Of a stretch of 32,569 bases of DNA, positions 9,811 through 32,569 are shown one piece after another. The notes below the pieces were generated by a model. The model was not told the origin of the DNA. It saw only the letters and a list, made by a program, of their open reading frames with translations, and did no database searches. The stretch comes from Gloeomargarita sp. SKYB120. Lineage in GTDB: Bacteria > Cyanobacteriota > Cyanobacteriia > Gloeomargaritales > Gloeomargaritaceae. Made by a program: the position numbers and the translations under genes. The stretch is taken from the NCBI GenBank assembly GCA_025062155.1, contig JANXAM010000027.1, forward strand, positions 1 to 32,569, written 5' to 3'. How positions within the stretch are numbered: position 1 is the first letter of the stretch; every line of letters starts with the position of its first letter.

Positions 9811-9817
9811 CTCCGCG

Positions 9818-16085: not shown

Positions 16086-16114
16086 GAACGGTTCCAAAAA
16101 CGTCATAATCTTTA

Positions 16115-16144
16115 ACTATACATCATGGGGCGACCTCCAGACAA
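16115..16144 (-). promoter_or_regulatory. Putative sigma-70 promoter of the rplM operon
   Basis: On the minus strand TTGTCT (16144-16139) and TATAGT (16120-16115) are 18 bases apart. They lie between the psaD terminator and rplM. Predicted initiation near 16108 supports the later rplM start at 16085. Confidence 0.6.
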
Positions 16145-16151
16145 GGGCCAT

Positions 16152-16172
16152 AAAAAAACACCCCGCAGGGTG
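16152..16172 (-). terminator. Rho-independent terminator after psaD
   Basis: On the minus strand the stem CACCC (16172-16168) and GGGTG (16163-16159) encloses the loop TGCG and is followed by seven T residues. It lies 36 bases after the psaD stop and separates psaD from the rplM promoter. Confidence 0.8.
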
Positions 16173-16207
16173 ATGGCGCGAGTGTTAGGAGCGCAGAACG
16201 TTGGCAA

Positions 16208-16630
16208 CTATTGCACGTCGTAGGGGTTTTGCCCAGTGAACTTGAGTCGGGCCGGTTCGGGGTTTTGGCCGATGCGCCGGTCGAGTTTGCCCACATAGGG
16301 ACGGCCCGGATTGACCTTTTCGGGATAGACCCCGTCGGCGGGATGGAGATATTGAATTTCCCCGTTGGGGTAAATCCGGTAGATTTTGTAGTCAATTTTG
16401 AATTTGCTGCGCAGTTGGGCGCCCAGGGCCAGGCATTGTTCCTTGCGGGCCAGATACAGCAGGTTCGGCCCTTCGCGCATGATGGCGGCGCCGCCAGTGG
16501 GCATTTCAAACACTTGCTCTTTGGGGCTGCTCCAGGTGATGGCGTACTTTTCCTCCACTTCGGCTTTGCGGAGCAACCCGCCCGTACTGCCGCCAAAAAT
16601 CGGGGCCGGCGTATTCAAATCCAGGGTCAT
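16208..16630 (-). CDS. psaD: Photosystem I reaction centre subunit II (PsaD)
   Basis: PsaD sits on the cytoplasmic (stromal) face of photosystem I and forms the docking site for ferredoxin. The 140-residue sequence has the strongly conserved [34 protein letters not shown] and [14 protein letters not shown] blocks, with [20 protein letters not shown] near the end. I chose the ATG at 16630 ([10 protein letters not shown]), preceded by GGAAG at a 5-base gap; an ATG five codons upstream is the alternative. The gene has its own terminator. The 76 bases between it and clpB contain a TACGAT hexamer that could be a -10, without a good -35, as is usual for light-regulated psa promoters. Confidence 0.97.
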
Positions 16631-16706
16631 AGGCACTTCCACCATGAAGAACTCGATGGCATCGTACCACTCCCACAGCGACGACAGGCGAGCTTGTGAA
16701 AAAGCT

Positions 16707-19307
<2,601 letters not shown>

Positions 19308-19350
19308 AGGGCTTTACCAGGATAGGAATTGCTTTTTCCGGTCTTTTTTC

Positions 19351-19356
19351 AGTATA
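19351..19356 (-). promoter_or_regulatory. Possible -10 element for clpB
   Basis: TATACT on the minus strand (five of six matches to TATAAT) lies about 44 bases before the clpB ATG. No matching -35 is found at the usual distance, so it could be an activator-dependent or alternative-sigma promoter. Confidence 0.3.
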
Positions 19357-19379
19357 AAACTGGGTTTTGCTGCTGCTGG

Positions 19380-19400
19380 TACGGTCGTCCGTATTTTTTT
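19380..19400 (+). terminator. Possible intrinsic terminator, plus strand
   Basis: The stem TACGG, loop TCGT, stem CCGTA is followed by seven T on the plus strand, between clpB and the DUF1614 gene, both of which lie on the minus strand. It would stop antisense transcription rather than end a known gene. The stem is only 5 bp. Confidence 0.35.
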
Positions 19401-19419
19401 AGGTTGATCTCCCAACGCC

Positions 19420-20094
19420 CTAGGTCAACAACAGGGAAAACAACCCACACAGGGCAATGCCATCGAACACACCCGCCCCGCCAATGCTCAAAATGCCCGG
19501 CGTCATCCGTTCAATCTGGGGCAAGTGCAGCAAATCCGCGCCGATCAAGGTCCCTAGCACACCCCCCGCAAAGGCTACCGGTGGCGCATTCACCCCGCCT
19601 GTCATCAAAATCGCCGTCATGGCTGCTGTTAGGGGAGCTACCAGCGCATTCATCTGAATCCCAATGCCGGGTACCACCTGGGCTGAGTAATAGCTCACCC
19701 CCGCCACAATCGCCGTCACCGTGAGAATTTGCAAGGGATTCGCTCGACCAAACTGGTACAGGGCTAGCAGCGTGGGAATCAGGCCACCCCCGACATTCAG
19801 GGCAACGATGGTCTTGCGTTCAATCTTGCGCAAGGGAATCCCCCAAAAAAACCGTGCGCTCCACAGCTCCGCCCAATCCGGCACATAAGTCACTTGCGAC
19901 ACGCGCTCATACAGGGGGATGTTGATGGTGCTCCCCAGTACCACCAGCGTAAACAGCAACAGCGCCGCTTGGGGTGAAAACCCTAGTTTCGCAACGGCCA
20001 CTTGTACCGCATCCAGCGTAATCACCAGCCACAGAAATGGGAAGGTGAGCAGGAAGAGAAGAAAGAGTAGGAATGTGACTGGCAAGTAAATCAT
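19420..20094 (-). CDS. DUF1614 family membrane protein
   Basis: This 224-residue integral membrane protein has about six hydrophobic segments, starting with MIYLPVTFLLFLLFLLTFPF. The family landmarks are LGSTINIPLYE (about residues 53-63), then VPGIGIQMNALVAPLTAAM, PPVAFAGGVLGTLIGADLLH and the near-terminal LSIGGAGVFDGIALCG. DUF1614 proteins occur in cyanobacteria, archaea and some other bacteria. Their substrate or role is not known to me; the paired glycine-rich blocks near the C-terminus suggest a transport-type fold, which is inference. The gene lies 15 bases downstream of the ChaB-like gene on the same strand, so the two are probably co-transcribed. Confidence 0.85.
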   Translation of the reverse strand: MIYLPVTFLLFLLFLLTFPFLWLVITLDAVQVAVAKLGFSPQAALLLFTLVVLGSTINIPLYERVSQVTYVPDWAELWSARFFWGIPLRKIERKTIVALNVGGGLIPTLLALYQFGRANPLQILTVTAIVAGVSYYSAQVVPGIGIQMNALVAPLTAAMTAILMTGGVNAPPVAFAGGVLGTLIGADLLHLPQIERMTPGILSIGGAGVFDGIALCGLFSLLLT

Positions 20095-20109
20095 AGAGCC
20101 ACAAATAAA

Positions 20110-20880
20110 TTACTCGGATTTGCGCTTGGAAAAAATCCCCCGCTCATCCCGGTCAAATAGATGTTTAATCCGTTCCCAGGCTTTTATCAAAGCATTTTGG
20201 GGTTCGGGATGTTCATCCAAGGCCTGGTTATAGGCTTCCACAAAGGTTTGCTGCGCTTCTTCGGATAAATCTCCCTTGATCTCCGGCGCAATTTGGTCTT
20301 TACTGGCCAATTTCCCTTCGCCTTCCTTGGGAATTTGCATATCTGTAATGGCCACTTCTTCCCCACCCGCACTTTGCAAGAGTAAAAAAATTTCTCCGGA
20401 TTTTTCCGCCGGTACTTCCACAACGAGAAGAAACTCGCCTGCTTGCACCCGCGTTTGGTAGATAGCCGCCTTATCTTGGGGCATTCCCAGGGAGATTAAC
20501 GCTGAACCCAAACCCGCTCCCAACGCGCCGTAGATAGCTCCCGTCGTGGCTCCTAGCAACGCCGCCGCCAAGGGTCCCGCTGCCACCACTGTGCCGATGA
20601 ACGGAATGAACAACACGCCTACCCCGGTCAGCAAGCTGAGTACCGAACCGAACAGAGACCCGTAGAGCGCTCCCGTTGCCAGCCCATCTAGGATCACATC
20701 CTTGCGGGTGAGAAAGCCAGTAATGCGGGCTTCAGTCTGGAAATTACGCCCAATAATGGAGATGCGTTCTCTAGGCACACCCCGGTTGAGCAAGCGTTGG
20801 ACAGCTTCCTGGAGCGCTTCTTGACGCTTAAACGTGGCGGAGACGCACTTTTCGGGGGGAAGGGCAAAGGCAGAAGTCAT
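20110..20880 (-). CDS. Glycine-zipper membrane protein with C-terminal ChaB-like domain
   Basis: This 256-residue protein has three parts. Residues about 10-50 (SATFKRQEALQEAVQRLLNR, then RISIIGRN) resemble the N-terminal ferredoxin-like unit of general stress proteins of the YflT/DUF1269 type. Residues about 64-130 are a glycine-rich hydrophobic stretch (GALYGSLFGSVLSLLTGVGV and following) able to cross or insert in a membrane, after which GEFLLVVEVP closes the first domain. Residues about 198-250 (LSEEAQQTFVEAYNQAL ... ALIKAWERIKHLF) resemble ChaB, a small protein named for a cation-regulation role in E. coli. The overall function is unknown, and a stress role is inference. A TAGTAT hexamer upstream could be its -10. 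Confidence 0.75.
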   Translation of the reverse strand: MTSAFALPPEKCVSATFKRQEALQEAVQRLLNRGVPRERISIIGRNFQTEARITGFLTRKDVILDGLATGALYGSLFGSVLSLLTGVGVLFIPFIGTVVAAGPLAAALLGATTGAIYGALGAGLGSALISLGMPQDKAAIYQTRVQAGEFLLVVEVPAEKSGEIFLLLQSAGGEEVAITDMQIPKEGEGKLASKDQIAPEIKGDLSEEAQQTFVEAYNQALDEHPEPQNALIKAWERIKHLFDRDERGIFSKRKSE

Positions 20881-20958
20881 GGCTGCTTTTCTAGTGACAG
20901 ACCCCAGCTAATACTAGCATATCCCCCCCTTCGTTAAAGCTAGCGCGTTACATCCTCC

Positions 20959-21285
20959 TTATTCGATGATGATGATGAGCCCTCTGCAGGTTTTTCCGTC
21001 CCACTTACCCAAACAGATGATAGTGCGCTGTGCGCCCGCCTGATCCTGCGGAGAAACCACCAGCCGCTTGCCCTGCAATGCTTTGGGGTCCACTTCAAAC
21101 ACACCCGGTGCGACCCTTTTGCCCACAGTTCCCAAATTCACTGCTGGCGAACGTTCTGATACCGGTTCGGCGGGCAACTGGATAGGTTCTGGTGCAGGCC
21201 GCTGCTTGGTTGGCTGTTGTGCCATGCTACCCATTGGAGCCAATAATGTCGAAGCCAAGACCACAGAAAGGACTGTTTTGTTCAT
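20959..21285 (-). CDS. Small secreted protein, unknown function
   Basis: This 108-residue protein has a clear Sec signal peptide (MNKTVLSVVLASTLLAPMGS, cleavage probably after SMA). A proline-rich stretch follows (QQPTKQRPAPEPIQLPAEP), then a small domain with two cysteines that could form a disulfide (TIICLGKWDGKTC) and a very hydrophobic isoleucine-rich end (GLIIIIE). GGAGG lies about 9 bases before the ATG. I do not recognise the family. About 270 bases upstream of it hold no gene that I can support. Confidence 0.72.
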   Translation of the reverse strand: MNKTVLSVVLASTLLAPMGSMAQQPTKQRPAPEPIQLPAEPVSERSPAVNLGTVGKRVAPGVFEVDPKALQGKRLVVSPQDQAGAQRTIICLGKWDGKTCRGLIIIIE

Positions 21286-21553
21286 CTTTTTGACCCTCCA
21301 ACGATGACCCCAAAGTTACAAGTAGCTACAACTCGACCTTTTTGTTTAGAGAGTCGTAACTATTTTGCATTCATTCAGACAGGTACAGTACCACAGTTGT
21401 TCCCCAGAACACCGGTCATCTGGGTGAAACGGTAGCGCCGATTGATACTGTAGGACCATTGAATTGGCGTCGGGATTCCCACAAGCTTAACGTTGTACTA
21501 GCAACAGGCAAGGGAGAATGCTCATTGCACTTGGATTACCATCATAACTAGCT

Positions 21554-22198
21554 CTACCGATTGGATAAACCAGCTTGTAGCGTCTCTAGTACAGTTTGTA
21601 ATTGCCCATTTAATAGGGCGGGGACATTAAGCCATAAACCAGGAAAAACTCGGCTTTTGATAATTCCTTGCGCGTCGGGCATTTCTCTGAAATAGACCTG
21701 ATTTTCTAAACAAAACCAGTAGAAGATTTGTTCGGACGCGACCCACACGAGATATTCCTTGACGCCACACCGACGATAGACATCTTTTTTGTCATGCAAA
21801 TCGTAGGCCGCACTGCTGGAAGCAATTTCAGCAATCAATTCCGGCGCACCCTCTATGTAGTTGTCTGGACTAATACGGGATTGACCACCCTGGGCCTCAT
21901 CCCAGCGAAGCAATAAATCAGGCTGTACTTCGTTCTTGGCATCTAAACGCACCGTCACATTATCTGCCGCAAAAACACCCGGCGTCGCACTCTGGTAAAC
22001 GCCTAGCCAAGTCGCAAGCTGGACGTGGGGTAAGCCATGGAATTCATACCGCACAGGGGATGCCACGTAAACAACTCCTTCGACAAGTTCAGCTTTTTTG
22101 ATATGGGTGCATTGTGCATAGCGGTACTCAAACTCTTCACGACTCAAGTGGTCGCCACTTTCTAAGGAAACAAAGTGTTTCATGGCTAGGGAACGCAT
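21554..22198 (-). CDS. Uma2 family (DUF820) restriction-endonuclease-fold protein
   Basis: This 214-residue protein belongs to a family greatly expanded in cyanobacteria with a PD-(D/E)xK nuclease-like fold. Visible marks are YELVEG-like KAELVEGVVYVASPV near residue 35, then NEVQPDLLLRW with the PD motif, APELIAEIASSSAAYDLHDK supplying the acidic residue and lysine, and YRRCGVKEYLVWV. The function of Uma2 proteins is not established; many appear to be decayed or toxin-like or mobile-element associated. The start ATG at 22198 is one of two; another lies five codons in. It is downstream of the porin gene on the same strand, with a 119-base gap. Confidence 0.9.
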   Translation of the reverse strand: MRSLAMKHFVSLESGDHLSREEFEYRYAQCTHIKKAELVEGVVYVASPVRYEFHGLPHVQLATWLGVYQSATPGVFAADNVTVRLDAKNEVQPDLLLRWDEAQGGQSRISPDNYIEGAPELIAEIASSSAAYDLHDKKDVYRRCGVKEYLVWVASEQIFYWFCLENQVYFREMPDAQGIIKSRVFPGLWLNVPALLNGQLQTVLETLQAGLSNR

Positions 22199-22270
22199 TT
22201 GACCTAGTCTTCATCCTACCAAAAGATAAGATTTAGACTGGGTAAATCCCATCTGCCGTCTCTTGGGTCG

Positions 22271-22285
22271 CAGGGCGCAGCCCCG
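22271..22285. repeat. Hairpin with GGGCTGCGCCC core after the porin gene
   Basis: On the minus strand CGGGGC, loop TGC, GCCCTG makes a 6-bp stem with one wobble, 33 bases after the porin stop. It is similar to the hairpins at 12517, 28358 and 28701 and may be part of the porin 3' end. Confidence 0.4.
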
Positions 22286-22317
22286 TTATCTTCCCTAGAG
22301 AAGAACCCGGAATAACA

Positions 22318-24015
22318 TCAGAACGAAAACGTCGTCCTAATCGCCCCCACTAACACAGTGGGATTATCCCGATTGCCTTCAGGGTTGAAGATGGCGAAAA
22401 TGCCCGGTGTGATTGATAGATATTCCGAATACTTAAAACGATAGGATGCTTCGACCAGGATGGGCACATCATCGCTACGACGGGCCACAAAACCATTGCT
22501 CACCAACCCCCGGCTGCTATTGAGATAGGGCGGCGCGCCCACCACCAATTGCGCTTGCGAACCCCGCGTCCCCACATCGGGAAAGGCAAACACCAGCGCG
22601 TAATTTAGGGCCGTGCCGCTGGCATTGATGCGCCGTTCTTCATCCCGAAACCAGGTCGCCCCAAACCATCCCCCAATGATAAAGTTCTGCAACGGTTGCC
22701 ATTTGAACTGAAAGCCTGCATTGTCCGCCGAAACGCGATGACCCGCCGCCAGCGCATCCACCGATTGATTGCCGACCAGACCACCTAGGTTCAAGGGCAC
22801 TGCATTTGGGTCGCTGTAACCCCGGATATACACTGCGCTCAACCCTAAATTCTCTAGGGGATAACCGGTCAACTGGGCATAGGCCACATAGGACGACCCA
22901 AATAACCCTTGACTCGGTGAGTAGGCCCCCGCTCCACTGTCACCGCTTGCCAAATACCCTAGGGTAAAGTTCAGCTTGTCGTTCAAGAAATTCACGCTAA
23001 AAGCTGCGCCGACACCCGCCCCGCCATTTTGGTTGTAAATTGGGTTGCGCAGACCAAAGGCGGAAATGGCCCCTTGACCGTCGTCATCCAACGGACTCAA
23101 GGTATCCACCTGGTCGTAAATGGCACCCCCTAACGCTGCAATCGTGATGCGTCCCTTGTCTCCTAACACCGGAAATTCATAGGTCAACGTATCTAAGCCC
23201 ACCTGACCACCGGAACCGCCGTTGAGAAAGCCATAACTCACACTGGCGCTATTGGTTCCCGTTGCAGCCAAGGCGCTCGTCCCAGGGATTGCCCCCAGCG
23301 GCACATCATCAATTTGGAGATTGGTGGTGAGTAAATCCTTGCCGGTGAAGCTGGTGTTGAACGTTAAATTTACCCGGTAGCCAAATGTGACTGCATCCTG
23401 TAAATTCTGAGTGCTTCGGGGTTGACCCTTGGGTACCGCTTGCCGGTTAGCGCCAAAGGCCCCTTGCACTCCAAAAATCACTTGCCCGGTTAGCTTGGTG
23501 GTGGTGGAGAATTGCTGGGCTTCTAAAGTTGCTGTACGGGCTTCTAATGTATCCACGCGTCCCCGTAAGAGCGCCAGTTCCGCCGCAAATTCTTCCTGCA
23601 AGCGCTGGAGCAATTTCATGTCTTCTTTCGTGACCAAATTCTCAGTGGAAGCGGCGATTAACTCATTCATTCGGTCCAGGCAAGCATTCAACCCGGCGGC
23701 GAATTCATAGCGCGTCAACGCCCGACGACCTTGATACGTGGGGGGCTTGGTCGGCAAACCCACAATACAGCCGTAACGTTCCACCAGTGATTGCAACGCC
23801 TGAAACGCCCAGTCCGTTGGTTTCACATCCACAAACTCCGAAACCGATGTCACCTGGCCCAGTTCGTCTTCGACCCGTAAATTCCGCACATACTCTCGAA
23901 CCTGGCGGATAGATTCCCGACTGTCGGTTACGTTGACTTGAGCGTGTACCCCAGCAGCCCAGACAATGCCCGTTACGATGGAACCGCTGACGAACCCACG
24001 CCACGTTAGCTTCAT
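22318..24015 (-). CDS. SLH-domain iron-uptake porin (OprB-type outer-membrane channel)
   Basis: This 565-residue outer-membrane protein is of the cyanobacterial SLH-porin family, members of which carry inorganic ions including iron. It has a signal peptide ending VHAQ (about residue 25). An SLH domain follows at about 57-120 (SEFVDVKPTDWAFQALQSLV, ERYGCIVGLP, RALTRYEFAAGLNACLDRM), which ties the protein to the cell wall. Next is a short coiled coil at about 125-165 (EEFAAELALLRGRVDTLEAR), then an OprB-type beta-barrel ending in IRTTFSF with the terminal phenylalanine needed for barrel assembly. I placed the start at ATG 24015, five bases after AGGAG; two more in-frame starts (24018, 24021) are too close to that motif. 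The promoter carries a Fur-box-like palindrome. Confidence 0.93.
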   Translation of the reverse strand: MKLTWRGFVSGSIVTGIVWAAGVHAQVNVTDSRESIRQVREYVRNLRVEDELGQVTSVSEFVDVKPTDWAFQALQSLVERYGCIVGLPTKPPTYQGRRALTRYEFAAGLNACLDRMNELIAASTENLVTKEDMKLLQRLQEEFAAELALLRGRVDTLEARTATLEAQQFSTTTKLTGQVIFGVQGAFGANRQAVPKGQPRSTQNLQDAVTFGYRVNLTFNTSFTGKDLLTTNLQIDDVPLGAIPGTSALAATGTNSASVSYGFLNGGSGGQVGLDTLTYEFPVLGDKGRITIAALGGAIYDQVDTLSPLDDDGQGAISAFGLRNPIYNQNGGAGVGAAFSVNFLNDKLNFTLGYLASGDSGAGAYSPSQGLFGSSYVAYAQLTGYPLENLGLSAVYIRGYSDPNAVPLNLGGLVGNQSVDALAAGHRVSADNAGFQFKWQPLQNFIIGGWFGATWFRDEERRINASGTALNYALVFAFPDVGTRGSQAQLVVGAPPYLNSSRGLVSNGFVARRSDDVPILVEASYRFKYSEYLSITPGIFAIFNPEGNRDNPTVLVGAIRTTFSF

Positions 24016-24058
24016 CATCACTCCTACCCACCATTCGTTTCATACACCGATGGTTTCA

Positions 24059-24087
24059 ATCTTATCGCCATTAAGAATTGTTATCAA
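24059..24087 (-). promoter_or_regulatory. Putative porin promoter with overlapping Fur-box-like site
   Basis: On the minus strand TTGATA (24087-24082) and TAAGAT (24064-24059) are exactly 17 bases apart. The 19 bases at 24085-24067, starting GATAACAAT, match the classical Fur consensus at 11 of 19 positions and cover part of the -35 and most of the spacer. Fur bound there would block polymerase. Confidence 0.55.
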
Positions 24088-24141
24088 GACCTAACCTGAC
24101 CAGGGCCGTAGAATGGTTGCAGGTGCAGTCCAGGTTAAAGG

Positions 24142-24597
24142 ATGTCGCCAGTGGGTGAGCAACCGCACTCCCTTTATGAACAGGACTATCAGGGGTAGAT
24201 TGGAAAAACAGTCCAGCTTTTGCGAGCCAGAGATTTCAACCAAATTGACCTGGAAAACCTAATTGAGGAGATAGAAAGCCTGGGGCGCAGTGAGAAGCGG
24301 GCTGTTTTGAGCCAACTGATCCGTTTGTGTGAGTAGCTGCTCAAGCTCAAATACTGGGAAAGTAAACGGGAGAACTGTTCTCGACAATGGCGGCAAGAAA
24401 TGGCTGATTTTCGGCTGGAAATCGAACTCATCCTACAGGATAGCCCCAGTCTAAAGAATTATCTCCAGGAACAGTTTATAGGGGCCTATCAAAAAGCACG
24501 CAGGCAATTTCTAGCTACGAGTGGTTTACCGGATCAAGCCGTTCCCAAAGCGCCAAACTATACCCCAGAACAAGCACTCGATGAATGGTGGTTATGA
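24142..24597 (+). pseudogene. DUF29 gene interrupted by two in-frame amber codons
   Basis: From the ATG at 24142 a complete DUF29 protein can be read: SLYEQDYQG, stop, IGKTVQLLRARDFNQIDLEN, LIEEIESLGRSEKRAVLSQL, IRLCE, stop, LLKLKYWESKRENCSRQW, and on to EQALDEWWL. The stops are TAG at 24196-24198, where the family normally has a tryptophan (TGG to TAG is one change), and TAG at 24334-24336, where a His/Gln is usual. There is no frameshift and the rest of the sequence is well preserved, so inactivation looks recent. The final TGA ends 2 bases before the convergent arsR stop. It differs clearly from the intact DUF29 gene at 12.0 kb and is not a recent copy of it. Confidence 0.8.
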
Positions 24598-24599
24598 AG

Positions 24600-24959
24600 C
24601 TACACCATGATAGCTGCATCCGTACTCAACACCTGGCGTAAAGCACTCAACAACTGGGGTACTAAACGGTAATAAATGCCAGTCCCCCGCCGCTCCCGCG
24701 TTAGCAATCCCGCGTCATACATGACTTTCAAATGATGACTGACAGTAGGTTGCGATAAGCCCAGGGTCTCCACCAGCGCACAAGCTTTGATTTCTTGACG
24801 GGGCTGCGCTGCAATCAAATTCAGCAAGTACAACCGCGTGGGGTCGCCCAGCACTCGAAAGACACCAGCGAGGGCTTCCGCCTGTTCAAACGTCAGCCGA
24901 CCCGTCAACAAGGGCGGGCAACAACGCCAAACCTGCGGATCAACCGTTCTGACCTTCAT
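24600..24959 (-). CDS. arsR: ArsR-family metalloregulator of the arsenic operon
   Basis: This winged-helix repressor of 119 residues is expected to leave the DNA when it binds arsenite or antimonite. The ArsR core is clear: VFRVLGDPTRLYLLNLI, then the recognition helix LSQPTVSHHLKVMYDAGLLT and the wing RRGTGIYYRLV. The usual CxC pair of E. coli ArsR is absent. Instead there is an N-terminal C13-C14 pair (WRCCPPLL) and a single C60 (EIKACALVE), the arrangement described for Corynebacterium glutamicum ArsR (C15, C16, C55). I prefer the ATG at 24959 because GGAG lies 5 bases upstream; a GTG two codons earlier overlaps that motif. It is divergent from acr3-arsC, with the shared control region between. 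Confidence 0.92.
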   Translation of the reverse strand: MKVRTVDPQVWRCCPPLLTGRLTFEQAEALAGVFRVLGDPTRLYLLNLIAAQPRQEIKACALVETLGLSQPTVSHHLKVMYDAGLLTRERRGTGIYYRLVPQLLSALRQVLSTDAAIMV

Positions 24960-24991
24960 ACCCACTCCACCCTAAGCCCATCATCACCCAC

Positions 24992-25031
24992 TGTATAGAT
25001 ACTTGTCAATATAGATGCAGGTTGATATAGT
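24992..25031. promoter_or_regulatory. Divergent arsR / acr3 promoter-operator with 16-bp-periodic repeats
   Basis: For acr3, TTGTCA (25003-25008) and TATAGT (25026-25031) are 17 bases apart on the plus strand. TATAG recurs at 24994, 25010 and 25026, exactly every 16 bases, and the first two copies extend to TATAGAT. For arsR a TATACA hexamer (24997-24992, minus) can serve as -10. An ArsR dimer bound to these repeats would cover both promoters. Confidence 0.6.
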
Positions 25032-25059
25032 GAGTTTGGATTTCGTTGAGATAGAGGCC

Positions 25060-26100
25060 ATGGGAAAGGCTGCGCCGTTGGGGGTTTTTGAACGGTATTT
25101 GTCGGTGTGGGTAGCGCTGTGCATTGTCGCAGGGGTGAAGTTGGGGTTAGCGTTTCCCCAGGTGTTTGGCTTCATCTCGCGCCTGCAATATGCCAACGTG
25201 AATTTTGTGGTGGCGGTGCTGATTTGGGTCATGATTTACCCGATGATGGTGAACGTAGATTTTGCTTCGCTGCACCAGGTGGGACGCAAACCCAAGGGAC
25301 TGTGTATCACGCTGGTGGTGAATTGGCTCATTAAGCCCTTCACGATGATGTTGCTGGGGTTGTTGTTTTTCCGAGTCATTTTTGCCGGGTGGGTGTCTCC
25401 CCAAGCAGCACAGGAATATATTGCGGGGATGATTTTACTGGGAGCAGCCCCGTGTACAGCGATGGTGTTTGTCTGGAGTCAATTGGTGCGGGGCGATGCC
25501 AACTACACGCTGGTGCAGGTGTCCATTAATGACCTAATCATGGTGTTTTTATTTGCCCCTATCGTGTCGTTTTTGCTAGGGGTGACGGATATTCAAGTGC
25601 CCTGGGAAACTTTGTTACTTTCAGTCATTTTGTATGTCTTGATTCCCCTGGTGGCGGGCTACTGGACGCGCAAACGGTTAGATGCAATCGGTCATGAAAT
25701 TGCCATTGCCAAGTTTTGTGAGCAAATTAAGCCCTATTCCATCGTGGGATTGTTAGCTACTGTTGTCTTGCTGTTTGGGTTTCAAGCGCAAACAATTCTG
25801 CAGCAACCGGCGGTGATCGCACTCATTGCCCTTCCCCTGCTGGTGCAAAGCTACGGGATTTTTGCGATTGCCTACGCCTGGGCGTATGTTTGGCGGGTGC
25901 CGTTTGAAGTGGCAGCGCCAGCGGCGTTGATTGGCACGTCCAATTTCTTTGAACTGGCGGTGGCGGTGGCAATTAGTTTGTTTGGCCTGGAGTCGGGGGC
26001 GGCGCTGGCGACGGTGGTGGGAGTGCTGGTGGAAGTGCCGGTGATGCTGTCGCTGGTGGCGCTGGCAAATCGCACGCGTCAATACTTTGCTCACACGTAA
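25060..26100 (+). CDS. acr3: Arsenite efflux permease, ACR3 family
   Basis: This 346-residue membrane protein of about ten helices exports arsenite from the cytoplasm. It has the ACR3 signature [20 protein letters not shown] with the essential cysteine of the fourth helix region, and [20 protein letters not shown] at the start. I placed the start at the ATG at 25060 ([17 protein letters not shown]). The longer open frame from 25015 would begin inside the promoter, upstream of the -10 box. AGAGG lies just before this ATG. arsC follows after 13 bases, so the two form one operon opposite arsR. In Synechocystis the equivalent gene is called arsB. Confidence 0.94.
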
Positions 26101-26113
26101 GGAGGGTTCGGCG

Positions 26114-26509
26114 ATGTACCGGATTATGTTTGTGTGTAAGAAAAATTCGCGGCGGTCGCAGATGGCGGAGGGATTTGCGCGGGCGTTGGGGGGCGAGAAG
26201 GTGCAGGTGGCTAGCGCCGGATTGGAAGCCAGTTTTGTGGACCCCTTAACTGTTCAGGTCATGGCGGAGGCCGGGATTGACATTAGCCAGCAAACGTCGA
26301 AACCCTTGAGTGATTTCCGGCCTGAGGATTTTGATGCGGTGATTTCCCTGTGCGGGTGTGGGGTGAGCTTGCCGCCGGAGTGGGTAACGCGGGATTACTT
26401 TGATGATTGGCAACTAGAAGACCCCGAAGGCGGCGACATGGAAACCTTCCGGCGGGTGCGCGACCAGGTGAAGGAACGGGTGGTCAAGTTGCTGCAGGAA
26501 TTGCCCTGA
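26114..26509 (+). CDS. arsC: Arsenate reductase, LMW-phosphatase fold, Synechocystis (glutaredoxin-linked) type
   Basis: The enzyme reduces arsenate to arsenite, which Acr3 then exports. The 131-residue protein has the phosphatase P-loop VCKKNSRRSQMAEGF with catalytic C8, and the pair C80/C82 in SLCGCGVSLPPEWV. These are the same three positions as in Synechocystis ArsC, which uses C8, C80 and C82 with glutathione/glutaredoxin rather than the thioredoxin triad of the Staphylococcus enzyme. Most relatives have a cysteine within the loop (NSCRS), where this one has arginine. I chose the ATG at 26114, nine bases after GGAGG (26101-26105), which directly follows the acr3 stop. Confidence 0.94.
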   Translation: MYRIMFVCKKNSRRSQMAEGFARALGGEKVQVASAGLEASFVDPLTVQVMAEAGIDISQQTSKPLSDFRPEDFDAVISLCGCGVSLPPEWVTRDYFDDWQLEDPEGGDMETFRRVRDQVKERVVKLLQELP

Positions 26510-26980
26510 TCTAGCCTAGCTACGTTAGATTGCTTCGTTGCTGGTGTAGTATGGGATGTCCCGTCCGGTTGCTCTTCGGTGGCATCTACAAACGCTTCAC
26601 CCAGCAGGTCTTGTGGCTCCCGGTCAAACTCTCGAATCTCGCGACAGTCAGCCAGTCTTAAAAGATGTGACCTCTGGCACGGCGATAAATTGGGCTAGCT
26701 CAGTTGAGGAGCGTGGCTCATTTTGCACGTGCGCCGGTTACAGGTGTGCAATCTCGTTCTCGCCATTGTCAACGATGGAGCGTGTTTGTAACTGATGCTA
26801 CAGACCTTGCCGCGACCTTCCCACTAGCCATTCAGCGAATTGCTTGGGCAATGGGACGCTCTTGCTAAAATTGTAGAGACTGTCACCCACGAGACGGGAA
26901 GGTTAGATAGCTAGATATTGAGTTTCAGTTGGTACTGTGCTTTTCATGGGCAAAAGGAAAAGTTCTAGGAGGACAGCATA
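26510..26980. other. 471-bp gap between arsC and the J-domain gene; no gene supported
   Basis: I see no gene that I can defend. Short open stretches exist on both strands: plus-strand residues ATDLAATFPLAIQRIAWAMG near 26795-26860, and minus-strand REIREFDREPQDLLGEAFVD near 26640-26580. Both read like protein fragments, which suggests decayed genes, but neither is long or recognisable. A tRNA-like D-arm sequence (26696-26713) has no matching anticodon or T arms. A TTGGGC-N16-TAAAAT pair near 26845-26875 might be a promoter for the next gene. Confidence 0.4.
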
Positions 26981-27994
26981 GTGAATTACTATGAAATTTT
27001 GGGCGTCAAGCCTACAGCAACAGCTGACGAAATTCGAGCAGCCTATCTACGGTTGTGCAAAGACCTGCATCCAGATAAGTTGCCCCACCTAAATGAGAAT
27101 CTACGTAAGATTGCAGAGGAGCAGCTTAAGGTAATCAATCAGGCTTATGCGACTCTCAAGGATGAGACACTGAGAGCAATTTATGACCAGATGATTGGTG
27201 TACAAGTGCCGTCCCCTAAACCTACTAGAGCCACTAATCTGACATTTGATGAACTGCTTTCTTCATCAGTACTAGAGGAGGGATTTCGTGACCTTGTCAA
27301 GGAAGAAGAAAGGTTGTGGAGAGACTTAACAAGAGAATTATATTCTTTGCGAAGAAAGCACAACATAAAGGAGAGTCAAAGTTTTCTTGAACTCATATTC
27401 CCCAGTGATTTAGCCGATAGATTGTCTCAAATAGCTTTAACTATGATTTTTCTGGTGATACTCCTAGTTTTCCCAGTACTACTAGTAGCATTTTTGAGCT
27501 TTTGCATCGTTGGCACCTTTAGATTGATATGTGAAAACGGTGAGCTTAAGCTTAGTGATGATGTTCGCCAAAAACTAGAGAAAGAAGAACTCATTTTTTC
27601 TCGGCTAGTCCAACAGTACTGGCAAGTGTCCAAGTCTTTCAGTCTAAGCTTTGCAATCCATAAAGTTTTTGGCCGCATCTATCCGAGCGCCTATGTAGCC
27701 GAAGTGACCAAGAGCCGCCGGAAGTTTGATAAAAAGCTTGCAGAGTTATTGAATCACAGGAAAAGAATAGCTAAATTATGCAAAGACCTTGATCCCAGCT
27801 CTCTAACAGTAGAATTTGTTTCTCATTTATCGGCATCAGAACGGCTGATTTTGGTGAGAATTCTTCAGCAAAAAATTCATGAGATAAAGGAACAGACAGA
27901 AGCTTTGGTGGCCACTCTCATCGGATTGGTAGGAACTGCAGTATTAATTAGCATTCTATTTGGTTCTTTCGGTGCTAGTAGAAGGCGATTTTAA
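26981..27994 (+). CDS. Membrane-anchored J-domain (DnaJ-like) protein
   Basis: This 337-residue protein starts with a canonical J domain (MNYYEILGVKPTATADEIRA, then CKDLHPDKLP with the HPD triad at about residues 31-33, and AYATLKDETLRAIYDQM), which stimulates a DnaK-type ATPase. After a polar linker there is a strong membrane stretch at about 149-180 (LTMIFLVILLVFPVLLVAFL). A second conserved part at about 250-310 has DPSSLTVEFVSHLSASERLI, followed by a final hydrophobic segment at about 310-330. There is no G/F or zinc domain, so it is a type III J-protein probably tethering Hsp70 to a membrane. Translation begins at a GTG 8 bases after a perfect AGGAGG. The gene is visibly richer in A/T than its neighbours. 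A second copy of the C-terminal part follows in the same frame after the stop. Confidence 0.85.
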   Translation: MNYYEILGVKPTATADEIRAAYLRLCKDLHPDKLPHLNENLRKIAEEQLKVINQAYATLKDETLRAIYDQMIGVQVPSPKPTRATNLTFDELLSSSVLEEGFRDLVKEEERLWRDLTRELYSLRRKHNIKESQSFLELIFPSDLADRLSQIALTMIFLVILLVFPVLLVAFLSFCIVGTFRLICENGELKLSDDVRQKLEKEELIFSRLVQQYWQVSKSFSLSFAIHKVFGRIYPSAYVAEVTKSRRKFDKKLAELLNHRKRIAKLCKDLDPSSLTVEFVSHLSASERLILVRILQQKIHEIKEQTEALVATLIGLVGTAVLISILFGSFGASRRRF

Positions 27995-28342
27995 CTTCTC
28001 AATCTTCAACACTGTAGTTATAGTAAGAAAAGAGCTAGTTATAGCAGTAATGTCCATTCAGATAATAGGGGTTCTCCAAAACCAAAATATAGCGATAGGG
28101 TCAAGGAGTTGCTGAAGCGTCGCAAGGAAAGGGTGCAGTTTTTCAAGGAACTCCATCCGAGCGCGCTGACCAGGGAATTTGTCGCCGGCCTATCCCCCTG
28201 TGAGCGGTTGCTACTCGTCAAAGCTCTGCAGCAAAAAGCGGAGGAGCTACAGCGGCAGCAGGAGCAGGAAGCCTGGGGAGACTTCCTACGGATCGCGGGA
28301 ACAGTTGTGCTCCTAGGGATTCTGATTCAGTCGGGGAGATGA
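27995..28342 (+). pseudogene. In-frame second copy of the J-protein C-terminal domain beyond its stop codon
   Basis: Directly after the TAA at 27992-27994 the same frame stays open for 115 codons. It encodes a polar, serine-rich linker (SYSSNVHSDNRGSPKPKYSD) and then a domain clearly homologous to the end of the preceding protein: LHPSALTREFVAGLSPCERL against LDPSSLTVEFVSHLSASERL, followed by LLVKALQQKAEEL against ILVRILQQKIHEI, and a closing hydrophobic segment. The only in-frame start codon is a TTG at 28109 with AAGGAG touching it, so independent translation is unlikely. The part after about 28100 is also richer in G/C than the J gene. The simplest reading is the remnant of a paralogue that lost its front half; read-through of the TAA is the alternative. 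Confidence 0.65.
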
Positions 28343-28357
28343 AAGCAAAAGCAGGAA

Positions 28358-28372
28358 CGGGGCTGCGCCTGG
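28358..28372. repeat. GGGCTGCGCC-core motif
   Basis: CGGGGCTGCGCCTGG lies 15 bases after the stop of the J-domain remnant and shares its core with motifs at 12517, 22271 and 28701. The hairpin is short (about 4 bp with one wobble). Confidence 0.3.
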
Positions 28373-28396
28373 TGACCTCGAGAACCCTAGGAGCAA

Positions 28397-28567
28397 TTAC
28401 TCAGCGTTTTCCAGCAACGAACCACAGATTGGGCAGGCTGAGCCATTGTAACAGTCAAAGCAGATCAGATGGCTGCGACCGTAGGTATTTTGGCAGCGTT
28501 TGGCCCATTGAAAGTCGCTGTAGGAGAGTTCTCTGCCGCAACGGTCACACCGCACTGTGTTCCACAT
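28397..28567 (-). CDS. Small Cys-rich (zinc-ribbon-like) protein, 56 residues
   Basis: This short gene begins MWNTVRCDRCGRELSYSDFQ and ends GSACPICGSLLENAE. It has seven cysteines in the pattern C7-x2-C10, C25, C36-x2-C39, C45-x2-C48. With H33 they could give eight ligands for two zinc ions, as in small ribbon or RING-like folds, or the protein could bind one zinc through two CxxC knuckles. GAGGAG stands 6 bases before the ATG, and a TTGACG -35 lies about 55 bases upstream, so it looks like a real, expressed gene despite its size. I do not recognise the family. It converges with the J-protein remnant (54-base gap). Such proteins often bind nucleic acids or other proteins, but no role can be read here. 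Confidence 0.75.
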   Translation of the reverse strand: MWNTVRCDRCGRELSYSDFQWAKRCQNTYGRSHLICFDCYNGSACPICGSLLENAE

Positions 28568-28596
28568 TGCCCACTCCTCGCTGGCCTCCCTAGGCT

Positions 28597-28626
28597 TAGT
28601 TACTACAGATGGGGGTGACCCGTCAA
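28597..28626 (-). promoter_or_regulatory. Possible promoter of the small Cys-rich gene
   Basis: On the minus strand TTGACG (28626-28621) is followed after 18 bases by TAACTA (28602-28597), or after 15 bases by TAGTAA. The -35 is good and the -10 is mediocre. Confidence 0.4.
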
Positions 28627-28707
28627 GAGCAAAGGGGCTTGCGCCAGCCGGACAAAATCGGAGCCTGGCTTAAGTCACTTGTTGGTTAGTCAAACAATAC
28701 GGCTGCG

Positions 28708-28723
28708 CCCTGGAACCCCAGGG
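28708..28723. repeat. Perfect palindrome CCCTGG-AACC-CCAGGG before the GT4 gene
   Basis: This 6-bp perfect inverted repeat has a 4-base loop and is followed directly by GATAATAA. It overlaps a GGCTGCGCC core at 28701-28711. No T-run follows, so it is more likely a protein-binding site or REP-like element than a terminator. Confidence 0.4.
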
Positions 28724-28806
28724 ATAATAAACGTCTTGTCAAAAGCCGCCGGTTTTTGCTAATTCCTGGGATATTCGCCGTTGGGTCGCCGCTTGGAGGT
28801 GTAGAA

Positions 28807-29871
28807 ATGCGCATTGCCCAAATTGCCCCTTTACACGAGAGCGTTCCACCCAAGCTCTACGGGGGAACAGAACGGGTTGTCTATTGGCTGACGGAGGAGC
28901 TGGTGCGCCGGGGCCATGAGGTCACCCTATTTGCCAGCGGCGATTCCCACACCCAAGCGCGGTTAATTCCCTTTTGCCCCCAGGCGCTGCGTCTGGACCC
29001 CAACGCCGTTGATACAGTAGCCCCCCATCTGCTGATGGTGGAAAAGGTGTTTCAGATGGCCCAGGAGTTTGACGTGATTCACGGCCACGTGGACTATTTC
29101 CCCTATTCCCTGGCGCGGCGGCATCCCCAGGTGGCGTTTCTGGCAACGTTACACGGGCGCTTGGACATTCCTGAATTAGGCCCCCTGTACGAGGAATTCC
29201 GCGATATTCCAGTGGTTTCGATTTCCAACGCCCAACGGGGACCCATCCCCCAGGCTCGCTGGGTCGGGACGGTCTATCACGGGTTGCCTCTGGATTTGCA
29301 CCCCTTTTACCCCCAACCGGGGGATTACCTGGCGTTTTTGGGGCGGGTCTCGCCGGAAAAAGGCTTGGATACGGCGATTGAAATTGCCACGCGCCTGGGC
29401 ATGCCCCTGAAGGCATCCATCAAAATTGACCGGGTGGACCGCCCCTATTACGAGTCCCAGATTGAACCCATGGTGCGCGCCAATCCGCTAGTGGAACTCA
29501 TCGGCGAGATTACGGAGAAAGAAAAAAGCGACTTTCTGGGTAAAGCTTACGCGGTGTTGTTTCCGATTCGCTGGCCGGAACCCTTTGGGCTGGTGATGAT
29601 TGAAGCGATGGCCTGTGGAACGCCGGTGATCGCGATGCGCTGCGGCTCGGTGCCGGAGGTGATGGTGGATGGGGAAACGGGGTTTATCGTGGATTCGGTG
29701 GACGCGGCGGTTGCAGCAGTACAGAAAGTCGGGGAACTCAGTCGCCAGCGGGTCCGACAAATTTTTGAAGAGCGGTTTAGCGTCGAACGCATGACCAACG
29801 ACTACGAGGCGCTCTATCAGCAATTGCTGGCGGAACGGACGACCGCGCCATCCCCGATGCCTACCCCTTAG
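28807..29871 (+). CDS. Family 4 glycosyltransferase
   Basis: This 354-residue GT-B-fold enzyme transfers a sugar with retention of configuration. It begins MRIAQIAPLHESVPPKLYGG, with TERVVYWLTEELVRRGHEVT forming the acceptor-side N-terminal domain. The donor-side domain starts with FLGRVSPEKGLDTAIEIATR (about residues 177-196) and has the GT4 signature FPIRWPEPFGLVMIEAMACG, whose EPFGLVMIE carries the E-x7-E motif, then TPVIAMRCGSVPEV. Donor and acceptor are not determined. I chose the ATG at 28807, 7 bases after GGAGG (28795-28799), over an in-frame TTG 17 codons upstream. The debranching-type gene follows after 55 bases, so a joint role in a glucan or other polysaccharide is plausible. Confidence 0.92.
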   Translation: MRIAQIAPLHESVPPKLYGGTERVVYWLTEELVRRGHEVTLFASGDSHTQARLIPFCPQALRLDPNAVDTVAPHLLMVEKVFQMAQEFDVIHGHVDYFPYSLARRHPQVAFLATLHGRLDIPELGPLYEEFRDIPVVSISNAQRGPIPQARWVGTVYHGLPLDLHPFYPQPGDYLAFLGRVSPEKGLDTAIEIATRLGMPLKASIKIDRVDRPYYESQIEPMVRANPLVELIGEITEKEKSDFLGKAYAVLFPIRWPEPFGLVMIEAMACGTPVIAMRCGSVPEVMVDGETGFIVDSVDAAVAAVQKVGELSRQRVRQIFEERFSVERMTNDYEALYQQLLAERTTAPSPMPTP

Positions 29872-29894
29872 CACTAGCGGTTGCGGACTGCTAA
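29868..29894. repeat. 6-bp inverted repeat at the GT4 stop codon
   Basis: TTAGCA (29868-29873), which includes the TAG stop, is matched by TGCTAA (29889-29894) across 15 bases. It may form a weak 3' hairpin before the next gene. It is short enough to be chance. Confidence 0.25.
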
Positions 29895-29926
29895 TCTAGG
29901 AACGTTGTACGGGAAGCGGGTACCGC

Positions 29927-32092
29927 ATGGCGGACGACATCATCCAGTACCAGGACCAGTACTACATCCGGGCGCAGGCGTCGCTGGTGGAAAGCCGGCC
30001 CCACGTGCTCAAACACGACAATTGCTTTGCGATTTTTGACCGGCTGGGGAACATGCGCCCGCTGGGGTTGGGGGACCACGGCTTATTCCGGGATGACACG
30101 CGGTTCCTGTCGCGCCTGGTGCTGGATTTGGAAGGGAAACAGTTCCTGCTGCTGAGTTCGGAGGTGCGCGAGGACAAGGACATCCTGGCGGTGGATTTGA
30201 CCAATCCCGAATTCACCACGTCCCAGGGCCAGTTCATCGGCCAAGATACTATTCATGTCTTCCGCACGACCTTCCTGTGGCACAACGTGGCTTACCAGCG
30301 CATCCGCGTGCATAACTACGGTTCCCACACTTTTCGCATCCCCATCACGCTGCGGTTTGAAGCGGATTTTGCCGATATTTTTGAGGTGCGGGGCATCCGG
30401 CGCAATCGCCAGGGCAATGGGTTGCCTTCTCTGGTGCAATCGGAACGGGTGGTGCTGCGCTACTGGGGGTTGGATAATGTCGAACGCCAAACCCATCTGC
30501 TCTTTGCGCCTGCACCGACGATGGTGGCGACCGACTTGGCCCAGTGGTGGGTGACCCTGGCGCCGCAAGCCGAACAGGACCTGTGGCTGACGGTGGTGTG
30601 CGCCTACGCGGGCGAAGCGATGACGGTGCTGAGCTATGACCAGGCGTTGCAGGCGGAACGTAGCCATCGCCACAAGTTGCGCAGCCAGTCGGCCCACATT
30701 GATACTGGCAATGCCCAGTTCAACGATTGGCTGAATGCGTCGCGGGACGATTTGTTGATGATGCTCACGGAAACGCCCTACGGGTTATACCCCTACGCTG
30801 GGGTGCCCTGGTTCAGCACGGTGTTTGGGCGGGACGGGCTTATCACGGCGCTGGCGACCCTGTGGTGGTATCCCGACATTGCGCGAGGGGTGTTGTTGTA
30901 TCTTGCAGCGCAGCAGGCGACCGAGGAAGACCCCAGCCGGGACGCTGAACCGGGTAAAATTCTGCACGAGCAACGCCAGGGGGAGATGGCCAAAACGCGG
31001 GAAGTCCCCTTCGGCCAGTACTACGGAAGTATTGATGCCACGCCCCTGTTTGTCGTGTTGGCGGGTCGGTATTTCCGGCGCACCGGCGACCGGCAGTTAT
31101 TGACCCAGTTGTGGCCCCACGTGGAAGCGGCGTTGCGCTGGATGGATACCTATGGCGACCGGGACGGGGATGGGTTTGTGGAATACGCCCGCAAGGTGCA
31201 TACGGGGTTGCGCAACCAGGGCTGGAAGGACTCGGACGACGCCATTTTTTATCCCGATGGCACCATTGCCGAACCGCCCCTGGCGCTGTGTGAGGTGCAG
31301 GGCTATGTCTATGAGGCCAAACTCCAGGCGGCCCACATGGCGGAAGCGCTAGAGCAATGGGAACGGGCGGCGGCCCTGCGACAACAGGCGTTGGATTTGC
31401 AACAGCGGTTCTGGCGGGCGTTTTGGTGCGACGACATTGGGGGTTATGCCCTGGCACTGGACAGCGAGAAACGCCCCTGCCGGGTGCGCAGTTCCAACAT
31501 GGGTCACTGTTTGTTTTCGGGCATCGCCCACCCTGACCATGCCGCTCGCATTGCCGCCCAAATCCTGGAACCTCATTTCTTTAGCGGTTGGGGGATTCGC
31601 ACGGTTCCCCAGGGCGAAGGTCGCTACAACCCCATGTCCTACCACAACGGCTCTATCTGGCCCCACGACAATGCCTTGATTGCCGCTGGCCTGGCTCGCT
31701 ATGGCTACAAGGAAGAGGCAGTGCGGGTATTGACGGCCCTGTTCGACGCCAGCCAATTTCTGGACCTGAAACGCCTGCCGGAACTGTTCTGCGGGTTTGC
31801 CCGCCGGCAACGGGAAGGCCCGACCCTGTATCCAGTGGCCTGTTTGCCCCAGGCGTGGGCGTCCGCCAGTGTGTTTTTGCTGTTGCAGGCCTGTTTGGGG
31901 CTGGAAATCGAAGGGGCAACCCAGCGGGTGTATCTGCAACAACCGACCTTGCCCCTGTGGTTACCCCATGTCACCCTGCAGAACATTGCAGTGGGGGCTG
32001 GTGCGCTGGATATCGGGCTATACCTGCACCACGGGGGCGTCAGTATCAATGTGCTGGGACGCCGGGGCCGGGTGGATTTGATCGTGCAATAA
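29927..32092 (+). CDS. Amylo-alpha-1,6-glucosidase / glycogen debranching-type protein
   Basis: This 721-residue cytoplasmic protein has two domains. The N-terminal beta-rich domain (about residues 15-220, with FAIFDRLGNMRPLGLGDHGL, FRDDTRFLSRLVLDLEGK) corresponds to the glycogen-debranching N-terminal family. The (alpha/alpha)6 catalytic barrel (about 265-700) has GVPWFSTVFGRDGLITALAT, GLRNQGWKDSDDAIFYPDG and NPMSYHNGSIWPHDNALIA, the usual substrate-binding landmarks of amylo-alpha-1,6-glucosidases. By family it would hydrolyse alpha-1,6-linked glucose stubs, but many bacterial members of this long-N-terminus group have not been tested and may act on other glucosides. It follows the GT4 gene by 55 bases and would complement the phosphorylase at 4.8-7.0 kb. 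Confidence 0.9.
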   Translation: MADDIIQYQDQYYIRAQASLVESRPHVLKHDNCFAIFDRLGNMRPLGLGDHGLFRDDTRFLSRLVLDLEGKQFLLLSSEVREDKDILAVDLTNPEFTTSQGQFIGQDTIHVFRTTFLWHNVAYQRIRVHNYGSHTFRIPITLRFEADFADIFEVRGIRRNRQGNGLPSLVQSERVVLRYWGLDNVERQTHLLFAPAPTMVATDLAQWWVTLAPQAEQDLWLTVVCAYAGEAMTVLSYDQALQAERSHRHKLRSQSAHIDTGNAQFNDWLNASRDDLLMMLTETPYGLYPYAGVPWFSTVFGRDGLITALATLWWYPDIARGVLLYLAAQQATEEDPSRDAEPGKILHEQRQGEMAKTREVPFGQYYGSIDATPLFVVLAGRYFRRTGDRQLLTQLWPHVEAALRWMDTYGDRDGDGFVEYARKVHTGLRNQGWKDSDDAIFYPDGTIAEPPLALCEVQGYVYEAKLQAAHMAEALEQWERAAALRQQALDLQQRFWRAFWCDDIGGYALALDSEKRPCRVRSSNMGHCLFSGIAHPDHAARIAAQILEPHFFSGWGIRTVPQGEGRYNPMSYHNGSIWPHDNALIAAGLARYGYKEEAVRVLTALFDASQFLDLKRLPELFCGFARRQREGPTLYPVACLPQAWASASVFLLLQACLGLEIEGATQRVYLQQPTLPLWLPHVTLQNIAVGAGALDIGLYLHHGGVSINVLGRRGRVDLIVQ

Positions 32093-32094
32093 GC

Positions 32095-32569
32095 TCACAA
32101 CCGGCTCAGCACCCGCTGGCGGTAGAGGGTGGCATCCATGCCGTCGCCGCTCAGGTTGGGAGGAAGCAAGCGCTGGAGTGCGGCAATGCGGGTTTCGGGG
32201 GCGGGATGGGTGCTCAAGAAGGCCAGCGCTGGGGGATAGCCGCGCAATTTCCCTAAAAACTCCGGCAAGCCCCGCCCGTCGTAACCGGCTCGCAACAAGT
32301 ACTGCAGGGCGCTGGCGTCAGCTTCAAACTCGTGCTGGCGACTCCGGGGACGGCGCAGGGCCAGTTCGATCAACAGGGCGTTCAACTGGCTGCCATCCGT
32401 GCCGAGCAAGGCGCTGACCCCCTGGGCGATGGCAACTTCTCGTAATTGCTGCACCAGGTGCCGGTGGACGATGTGGCCAATCTCATGCCCCAGGACCCCT
32501 GCCAACTGCGCTTCGTTATCGGCAGCTCGCAACAGTCCCGTGGTCACGTACACAAATCCCCCTAACGTG
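32095..32569 (-). CDS. M48 family metalloprotease (partial, runs off right edge)
   Basis: Only the C-terminal part is in the window; the frame is open to the last base (TLGGFVYVTTGLLRAADNEA). The zinc site is complete: HEIGH (two histidines and the catalytic glutamate), then HEFEADASALQYLLRAGYD with the third-ligand glutamate. The tail FLSTHPAPETRIAALQRLLP is typical of M48 peptidases of the HtpX/BepA/Oma1 group. BepA-like members trim or help assemble outer-membrane proteins, but the missing N-terminus (signal peptide or membrane helices) prevents a finer call. Its stop is 2 bases from that of the convergent debranching-type gene. Confidence 0.93.
   Translation of the reverse strand, partial: TLGGFVYVTTGLLRAADNEAQLAGVLGHEIGHIVHRHLVQQLREVAIAQGVSALLGTDGSQLNALLIELALRRPRSRQHEFEADASALQYLLRAGYDGRGLPEFLGKLRGYPPALAFLSTHPAPETRIAALQRLLPPNLSGDGMDATLYRQRVLSRL

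What the first reader, a model, noticed from the sequence alone, without database searches (positions are those of the whole stretch)
27995..28342. Duplicated C-terminal module stays open in frame beyond the stop codon of a membrane J-protein
The 115 codons after the TAA of the J-domain gene contain no stop and encode a serine-rich linker plus a second copy of that protein's own C-terminal module (LHPSALTREFVAGLSPCERL against LDPSSLTVEFVSHLSASERL, then LQQK and a terminal hydrophobic segment). The second copy has no usable start codon and is richer in G/C than the gene before it. Either a resident paralogue was beheaded when an A/T-richer relative replaced its front part, or a longer form is made by read-through of the TAA. 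The module itself (ExxHPSxLTxEFVxxLSxxERLxLVxxLQQK plus membrane anchor) appears to be an unnamed unit tied to J-proteins.
Basis: partly seen in the sequence, partly recalled or inferred. Interest (0 to 1): 0.62.

Follow-up and report, generated by a model that had tools for sequence, protein, structure and literature searches.

The report
Scar of a CRISPR-linked J-protein gene
The extra coding stretch is the leftover tail of a second, decapitated copy of its neighbour gene, and both copies sit in the ruins of a bacterial immune (type III-B CRISPR) locus; the useful discovery is that this family of membrane-anchored chaperone helpers repeatedly travels with type III-B CRISPR genes in cyanobacteria.

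Summary
After the TAA of the J gene (26981-27994) the frame is open for 115 codons. From 28079 on it encodes a second copy of the J protein's C-terminal module (43% over 83 aa, E=3e-14). Read-through is unlikely: every complete relative has one module and ends there, and the 28-codon linker has no homology and is open by chance. The tail is closest to the single J gene of other Gloeomargarita, so it is a beheaded paralogue. Just upstream lie remnants of cmr2 and csx18, in the order found in Gloeomargarita SKYG116 (cmr2, csx18, J). In three relatives the order is csx18-cas1-cas2-J-CRISPR array. In Thermosynechococcus the homologous J gene closes cas10-cmr3-4-5-6 operons, once with a 4-nt overlap; two related genomes lost the whole operon by one deletion that left only the J tail, which then evolved neutrally. 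So the window holds the ruin of a type III-B locus: one intact J gene and the tail of another. The family, a membrane J-domain protein linked to type III-B CRISPR in two cyanobacterial families, is not listed as such in the libraries searched. Its function is inferred, not shown.

The parts
26572..26653 (-). remnant of cmr2/cas10 (type III-B), antisense as in Gloeomargarita SKYG116
   Evidence: 26575-26643 is 87% identical to G006:C208 4850-4918, inside cmr2; translated match 69%, E about 1e-14
26708..26911 (+). remnant of csx18, broken by deletions
   Evidence: tblastn of G006 Csx18: 32% over 104 aa, E=5.6e-10; tblastx pieces 64-71%
26981..27994 (+). intact membrane J-protein gene (337 aa): J domain, coiled coil, TM segment(s), coiled coil, C-terminal module, C-terminal TM
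   Evidence: Pfam DnaJ E=1.7e-18; HPD at 30, hydrophobic segments 144-186 and 305-333; AGGAGG before GTG
27716..27991 (+). C-terminal module and membrane anchor of the intact J protein
   Evidence: aligned with tail and with relatives
27995..28078 (+). non-homologous spacer, open by chance
   Evidence: no match in relatives; P(open) 0.09-0.42
28079..28342 (+). beheaded tail (87 codons + TGA) of a second J gene
   Evidence: 70% to G006 J residues 274-359, ungapped; pN 0.18, pS 0.85
26511..28356 (.). segment absent from the collinear DNA of the near relative; both edges are rearrangement breakpoints
   Evidence: window 15967-26510 = G006:C196 (97.6%), 28357-32569 = G006:C225 (98.8%), nothing between

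Best explanation
The open frame after the J gene is the 3' remnant of a second copy of the same gene. Both belong to a family of membrane-anchored, class-C J-domain proteins that accompany type III-B CRISPR-Cas loci in Gloeomargarita and Thermosynechococcus. The ancestral order at this site was cmr2 (reverse), csx18, J, J'. Rearrangement and deletion destroyed cmr2 and csx18, joined the segment between arsC and the glycosyltransferase gene, and took off the front of J', leaving one complete J gene and the tail of another (order of remnants shown; order of events inferred). Inferred function of the intact family: the J domain (HPD present) stimulates DnaK; the TM segments and C-terminal module hold it at the membrane; it serves the type III-B system there, either in building or placing the Cmr or adaptation proteins or as a membrane-side effector. 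No step of this function is shown. The confidence given is for the remnant-in-a-CRISPR-ruin reading; for the functional link alone it is about 0.4-0.5.
For: Duplication. Tail nearer to the orthologue than to its neighbour. Relatives have one J gene with one module, in csx18-cas1-cas2-J-array order beside cmr2-3-4 (G001, G003, G004) or csx18-J (G006). Remnants of cmr2 and csx18 upstream in the window, in the same order. Breakpoints at both edges. Independent link: cas10-cmr3-cmr4-cmr5-cmr6/1-J in three Thermosynechococcus-type genomes (L127, L128, L155), 52 nt apart in G146 and overlapping by ATGA in G102. Independent beheading: in G049 and G153 one deletion runs from just before cas10 to J codon about 199 and leaves the tail; the two tails have pN/pS 0.86 against 0.26-0.36 between intact copies.
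Against: Not every member is CRISPR-linked: the C1 paralogue of this genome, G102's clpB-side copy, G081, G117, G119 and G255 show no cas genes nearby. The tail's frame is intact and its substitution pattern constrained, so a still-working small protein is not excluded. The tail's pairing with G006 is weakly supported (67/64), and pairing with the adjacent J gene is not rejected (p-AU 0.108). The genome is a 91-contig assembly and reads were not available.
Confidence: 0.8

Rival explanations
1. Partial replacement: an A/T-rich J gene came in from outside and overwrote the front of the resident J gene.
For: Sharp G/C step near 28080, where homology of the tail begins; the J gene has a long branch.
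Against: J genes of this family are A/T-rich in relatives too (0.38-0.49); the J gene falls inside the Gloeomargarita SKYG-type clade with 99/99 support; the J-side flank carries csx18 and cmr2 remnants in native order, so it is as resident as the tail.
Confidence: 0.2
2. The tail is still a gene: a short membrane protein (69-87 aa) made from GTG 28133 or by coupling to the J gene.
For: Frame intact over 87 codons, ungapped against G006, pN/pS about 0.2; 88 random substitutions would leave it stop-free in only 6% of trials; GTG 28133 has a weak Shine-Dalgarno-like AAGGA.
Against: Its constraint can date from before the beheading; the comparable tails in G049 and G153 evolve neutrally, with frameshift and deletion; no relative keeps a separate tail gene.
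Confidence: 0.12
3. Read-through of the TAA makes a J protein with two modules.
For: The frame is shared and open.
Against: About 20 family members seen; none has two modules; shared frame by chance 1/3 and linker open 0.09-0.42; TAA is generally the least leaky stop (own knowledge); linker not conserved anywhere.
Confidence: 0.03
4. Assembly artefact joining two loci.
For: Draft assembly; both edges are breakpoints relative to G006 and G002.
Against: cmr2, csx18, J and J tail lie in a biologically coherent order; the joint is inside a 32.6-kb contig; hemD on the other side of the break is likewise rearranged in this genome, next to a transposase-like gene.
Confidence: 0.07

Closest known systems
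J-domain proteins of class C (DnaJ superfamily, Pfam PF00226)
   Same: J domain with HPD, free architecture, membrane segments
   Different: carries an unnamed C-terminal module plus anchor; no Pfam, NCBIfam or PADLOC family convincingly covers anything but the J domain
Membrane ancillary proteins of type III CRISPR (Cam1, Csx23; PMC10808066, PMC11014256)
   Same: membrane protein encoded in a type III locus whose Cas10 has a GGDD motif
   Different: no CARF, SAVED or other known cyclic-nucleotide sensor found; has a J domain; never tested
Csx18 (NF040558), small CRISPR adaptation-associated protein
   Same: neighbour of the J gene in Gloeomargarita, with hydrophobic stretches
   Different: unrelated sequence; J protein has no such hit
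Type III-B locus of Thermosynechococcus CL-1 and SCTE542 (PMC7005997)
   Same: probably the same locus as in G062/G146 (inferred from position)
   Different: the paper mentions no DnaJ-type protein (0 occurrences), calls the system partial (no cmr1, cmr5) and horizontally gained; here cmr5 and a cmr6-cmr1-like fusion are found, and scars in G036, G049 and G153 speak for loss

Membership tests
J-domain protein (class C) | J domain with HPD | tested here: met
   PF00226 E=1.7e-18; HPD at residue 30 and in every intact member examined
J-domain protein (class C) | no DnaJ zinc finger or C-terminal peptide-binding domains | tested here: met
   only the J domain is matched above cut-off in Pfam
J-domain protein (class C) | stimulates Hsp70/DnaK ATPase | not testable with these tools
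   -
type III-B CRISPR ancillary protein | gene adjacency to cas10/cmr or adaptation genes in independent lineages | tested here: met
   Gloeomargarita (G001, G003, G004, G006) and Thermosynechococcus (G062, G146, G102 at another site)
type III-B CRISPR ancillary protein | always or mainly found with CRISPR | tested here: inconclusive
   7 complete copies linked, about 6 not linked, others beside remnants
type III-B CRISPR ancillary protein | known cyclic-nucleotide sensor domain (CARF, SAVED) | tested here: not met
   no such hit in Pfam, NCBIfam or PADLOC
type III-B CRISPR ancillary protein | contributes to immunity | not testable with these tools
   -
gene remnant (pseudogene) | 5' part missing against an intact homologue | tested here: met
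   matches G006 J residues 274-359 only; no head upstream
gene remnant (pseudogene) | neutral evolution after truncation | tested here: inconclusive
   no sister copy of this tail; analogous tails are neutral
stop-codon read-through extension | extension conserved in relatives | tested here: not met
   no relative has it

The most novel reading that the evidence does not exclude
The membrane J-protein is a working part of type III-B CRISPR immunity: anchored at the membrane by its C-terminal module, it brings DnaK to the Cmr or adaptation complex, or acts as a membrane effector, which would make it a chaperone-type CRISPR ancillary protein of a kind not found in the libraries and papers searched here.
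Probability: 0.4. Interest if true: 0.75.

Novelty: new variant of a known kind. Interest (0 to 1): 0.5.

Why it matters
The tail itself is an ordinary gene remnant. It matters as a pointer: it led to a J-domain membrane protein family that recurs as the last gene of type III-B operons, or between cas2 and the array, in two cyanobacterial families, and that PADLOC, NCBIfam and Pfam do not list as CRISPR-associated. If it is functional, it ties the Hsp70 system to CRISPR immunity. The J tails also serve as scars that reveal loss of CRISPR operons in Thermosynechococcus, against a published proposal of recent gain.

Tried and rejected
Chimera within the J gene: identity to relatives along its length shows no switch. 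Identity of the tail with the resident J gene of contig C55: rejected, because C55 is 98% to G006 while the tail is only 74% in DNA; C55 ends a few codons into the J gene, so its J body is unseen. C55 joined to the window by a shared repeat: no long shared end. Missing head elsewhere in the genome: none found. CRISPR array in the window near the J gene: no direct repeats. Plasmid-borne relatives: none. Structure prediction gave only a mostly helical, low-confidence model (pLDDT 63, pTM 0.43), so no fold search was run. Papers: no mention of a J protein linked to type III CRISPR was found in the held library.

Full report
What is there. The J gene runs from GTG 26981 to TAA 27992-27994 (337 aa). 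The frame after the TAA is open for 115 codons to TGA 28340-28342. Residues from 28079 on are a second copy of the C-terminal module: 36/83 identical to the J protein, E=3e-14. The 28 codons between are not homologous to anything found and are open by chance (0.09-0.42). In-frame TTG 28109 and GTG 28133 lie inside the module.

Whose tail it is. The window is contig C27 of a 2.48-Mb, 91-contig genome. Four relatives of the same genus have a single complete J protein of about 362-374 aa: G006 (Gloeomargarita sp. SKYG116), G001 (Gloeomargaritales VI4D9), G003, and G004 (3,049,282 bases, perhaps G. lithophora). The tail is 70, 56, 56 and 57% identical to theirs, but 41-43% to the neighbouring J protein. 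The neighbouring J gene is evenly divergent from theirs, 76% in the J domain and about 45% elsewhere, so it is a separate paralogue and not a hybrid. A tree puts tail, neighbour, the C1 paralogue and the G006 gene in one clade (99/99), with finer order unresolved. Tail against G006: pN 0.18, pS 0.85, so most of its history was under purifying selection.

The setting. G006 is 97-99% identical to this genome on both flanks, but the flanks lie on different contigs there (window 15967-26510 = C196; 28357-32569 = C225), and 26511-28356 has no such counterpart. In G006 and G002 arsC ends against hemD/cobA. The gene before the glycosyltransferase is icd in G006 and another gene in G002 (gene names by eye). 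In this genome hemD sits elsewhere beside a transposase-like gene. So both edges of the segment are rearrangement breakpoints. Inside it, upstream of the J gene, are a cmr2 remnant (26575-26643, 87% DNA identity) and a csx18 remnant (26708-26911, E=5.6e-10). Order and strand match G006 contig C208: cmr2 reverse, csx18, J.

The family is linked to type III-B CRISPR. In G001, G003 and G004 the J gene follows csx18-cas1-cas2 on one strand and precedes, by about 200 nt in G001, an array of 20 to 72 repeats of GTTTCCAACWAATCCAATTAACGCATTGGAAGCGAG; cmr2, cmr3 and cmr4 diverge. In G006 it follows csx18 directly. In a different family, Thermosynechococcaceae, the homologous J protein (J domain, TM segments, same C-terminal module) closes cas10-cmr3-cmr4-cmr5-cmr6 operons in G062, G146 and, at another chromosomal site, in G102, where its ATG overlaps the cmr6 stop (ATGA). 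Cas10 has GGDD in all those read. G036 (2,593,857 bases, by size probably strain BP-1) keeps a cmr6 remnant just before an intact J gene; G208 has part of cmr6 followed by a broken J gene. In G049 and G153 a single deletion runs from just upstream of cas10 to about codon 199 of J, leaving only the J tail. Those tails share a frameshift and have pN/pS 0.86 between them, against 0.26-0.36 between intact copies. This is the same outcome as in the window, reached independently, and it shows that a stranded tail is dispensable at least there.

Limits of the link. Other members have no cas genes within about 9 kb, as far as homologues of the queried Cas proteins tell: the C1 paralogue, G102's clpB-side copy, G081, G117, G119, G255. 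The module also ends a kinase-like protein without a J domain (L130; read by eye). Linkage was not put to a formal test over all genomes.

How it probably works. Shown: J domain with HPD, hydrophobic segments in the middle and, in most members, at the C-terminus, operon position. Inferred: DnaK recruitment to the membrane in the service of the Cmr or adaptation complex, or a membrane-side effector role like Cam1 or Csx23 (PMC10808066, PMC11014256). No sensor domain of the known kinds was found, so it is not filed as such an effector.

Relation to the literature. A 2020 paper on Thermosynechococcus CL-1 (PMC7005997) reports a type III-B locus in CL-1 and SCTE542, probably the G062/G146 locus, as partial (lacking cmr1 and cmr5) and horizontally gained. 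Here PADLOC finds Cmr5 in G102's operon and a Cmr6 protein with a Cmr1-like C-terminal part; the corresponding 129-aa gene of G146 is 76% identical to that Cmr5 and 88% to the one in G062; and the scars in G036, G049 and G153 favour loss of an older operon. The identity of the genomes is inferred from size and locus position. A systematic type III survey (PMC11229360) contains no mention of DnaJ or chaperone in its main text.

Verdict. The finding is real. Its tail is an ordinary remnant; read-through is unlikely. The interest lies in the CRISPR-linked J-protein family to which both copies belong.

Noticed in passing
L066 (G000:C55) 5449-6738 and 7208-7294: The genome's other type III-B locus: cas10 frame shortened against G006, and at the contig end the J start is missing 22 nt including the ATG.
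   Followed up: partly
L127, L128, L129, L131, L156, L158: Thermosynechococcus-type genomes show loss scars of a cas10-cmr-J operon next to serA, contrary to the published idea of recent horizontal gain.
   Followed up: yes
L031:6157-7587: The C1 paralogue's frame continues about 115 codons past the module and anchor; possible fusion or frameshift.
   Followed up: no
L130 (G072:C2:771000-790900): A 665-aa protein with kinase motifs ends in the same TM-module-TM unit without a J domain.
   Followed up: no
window 15967-32569 against G006; L102, L167: Identity of this genome to SKYG116 is a mosaic: 97-99% on window flanks and on the cmr locus, 80-85% at icd and ndh genes.
   Followed up: partly
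L157 (G011:C1) 8887-9832: J gene with a frameshift just before the module in another cyanobacterial family; the family is often broken.
   Followed up: no
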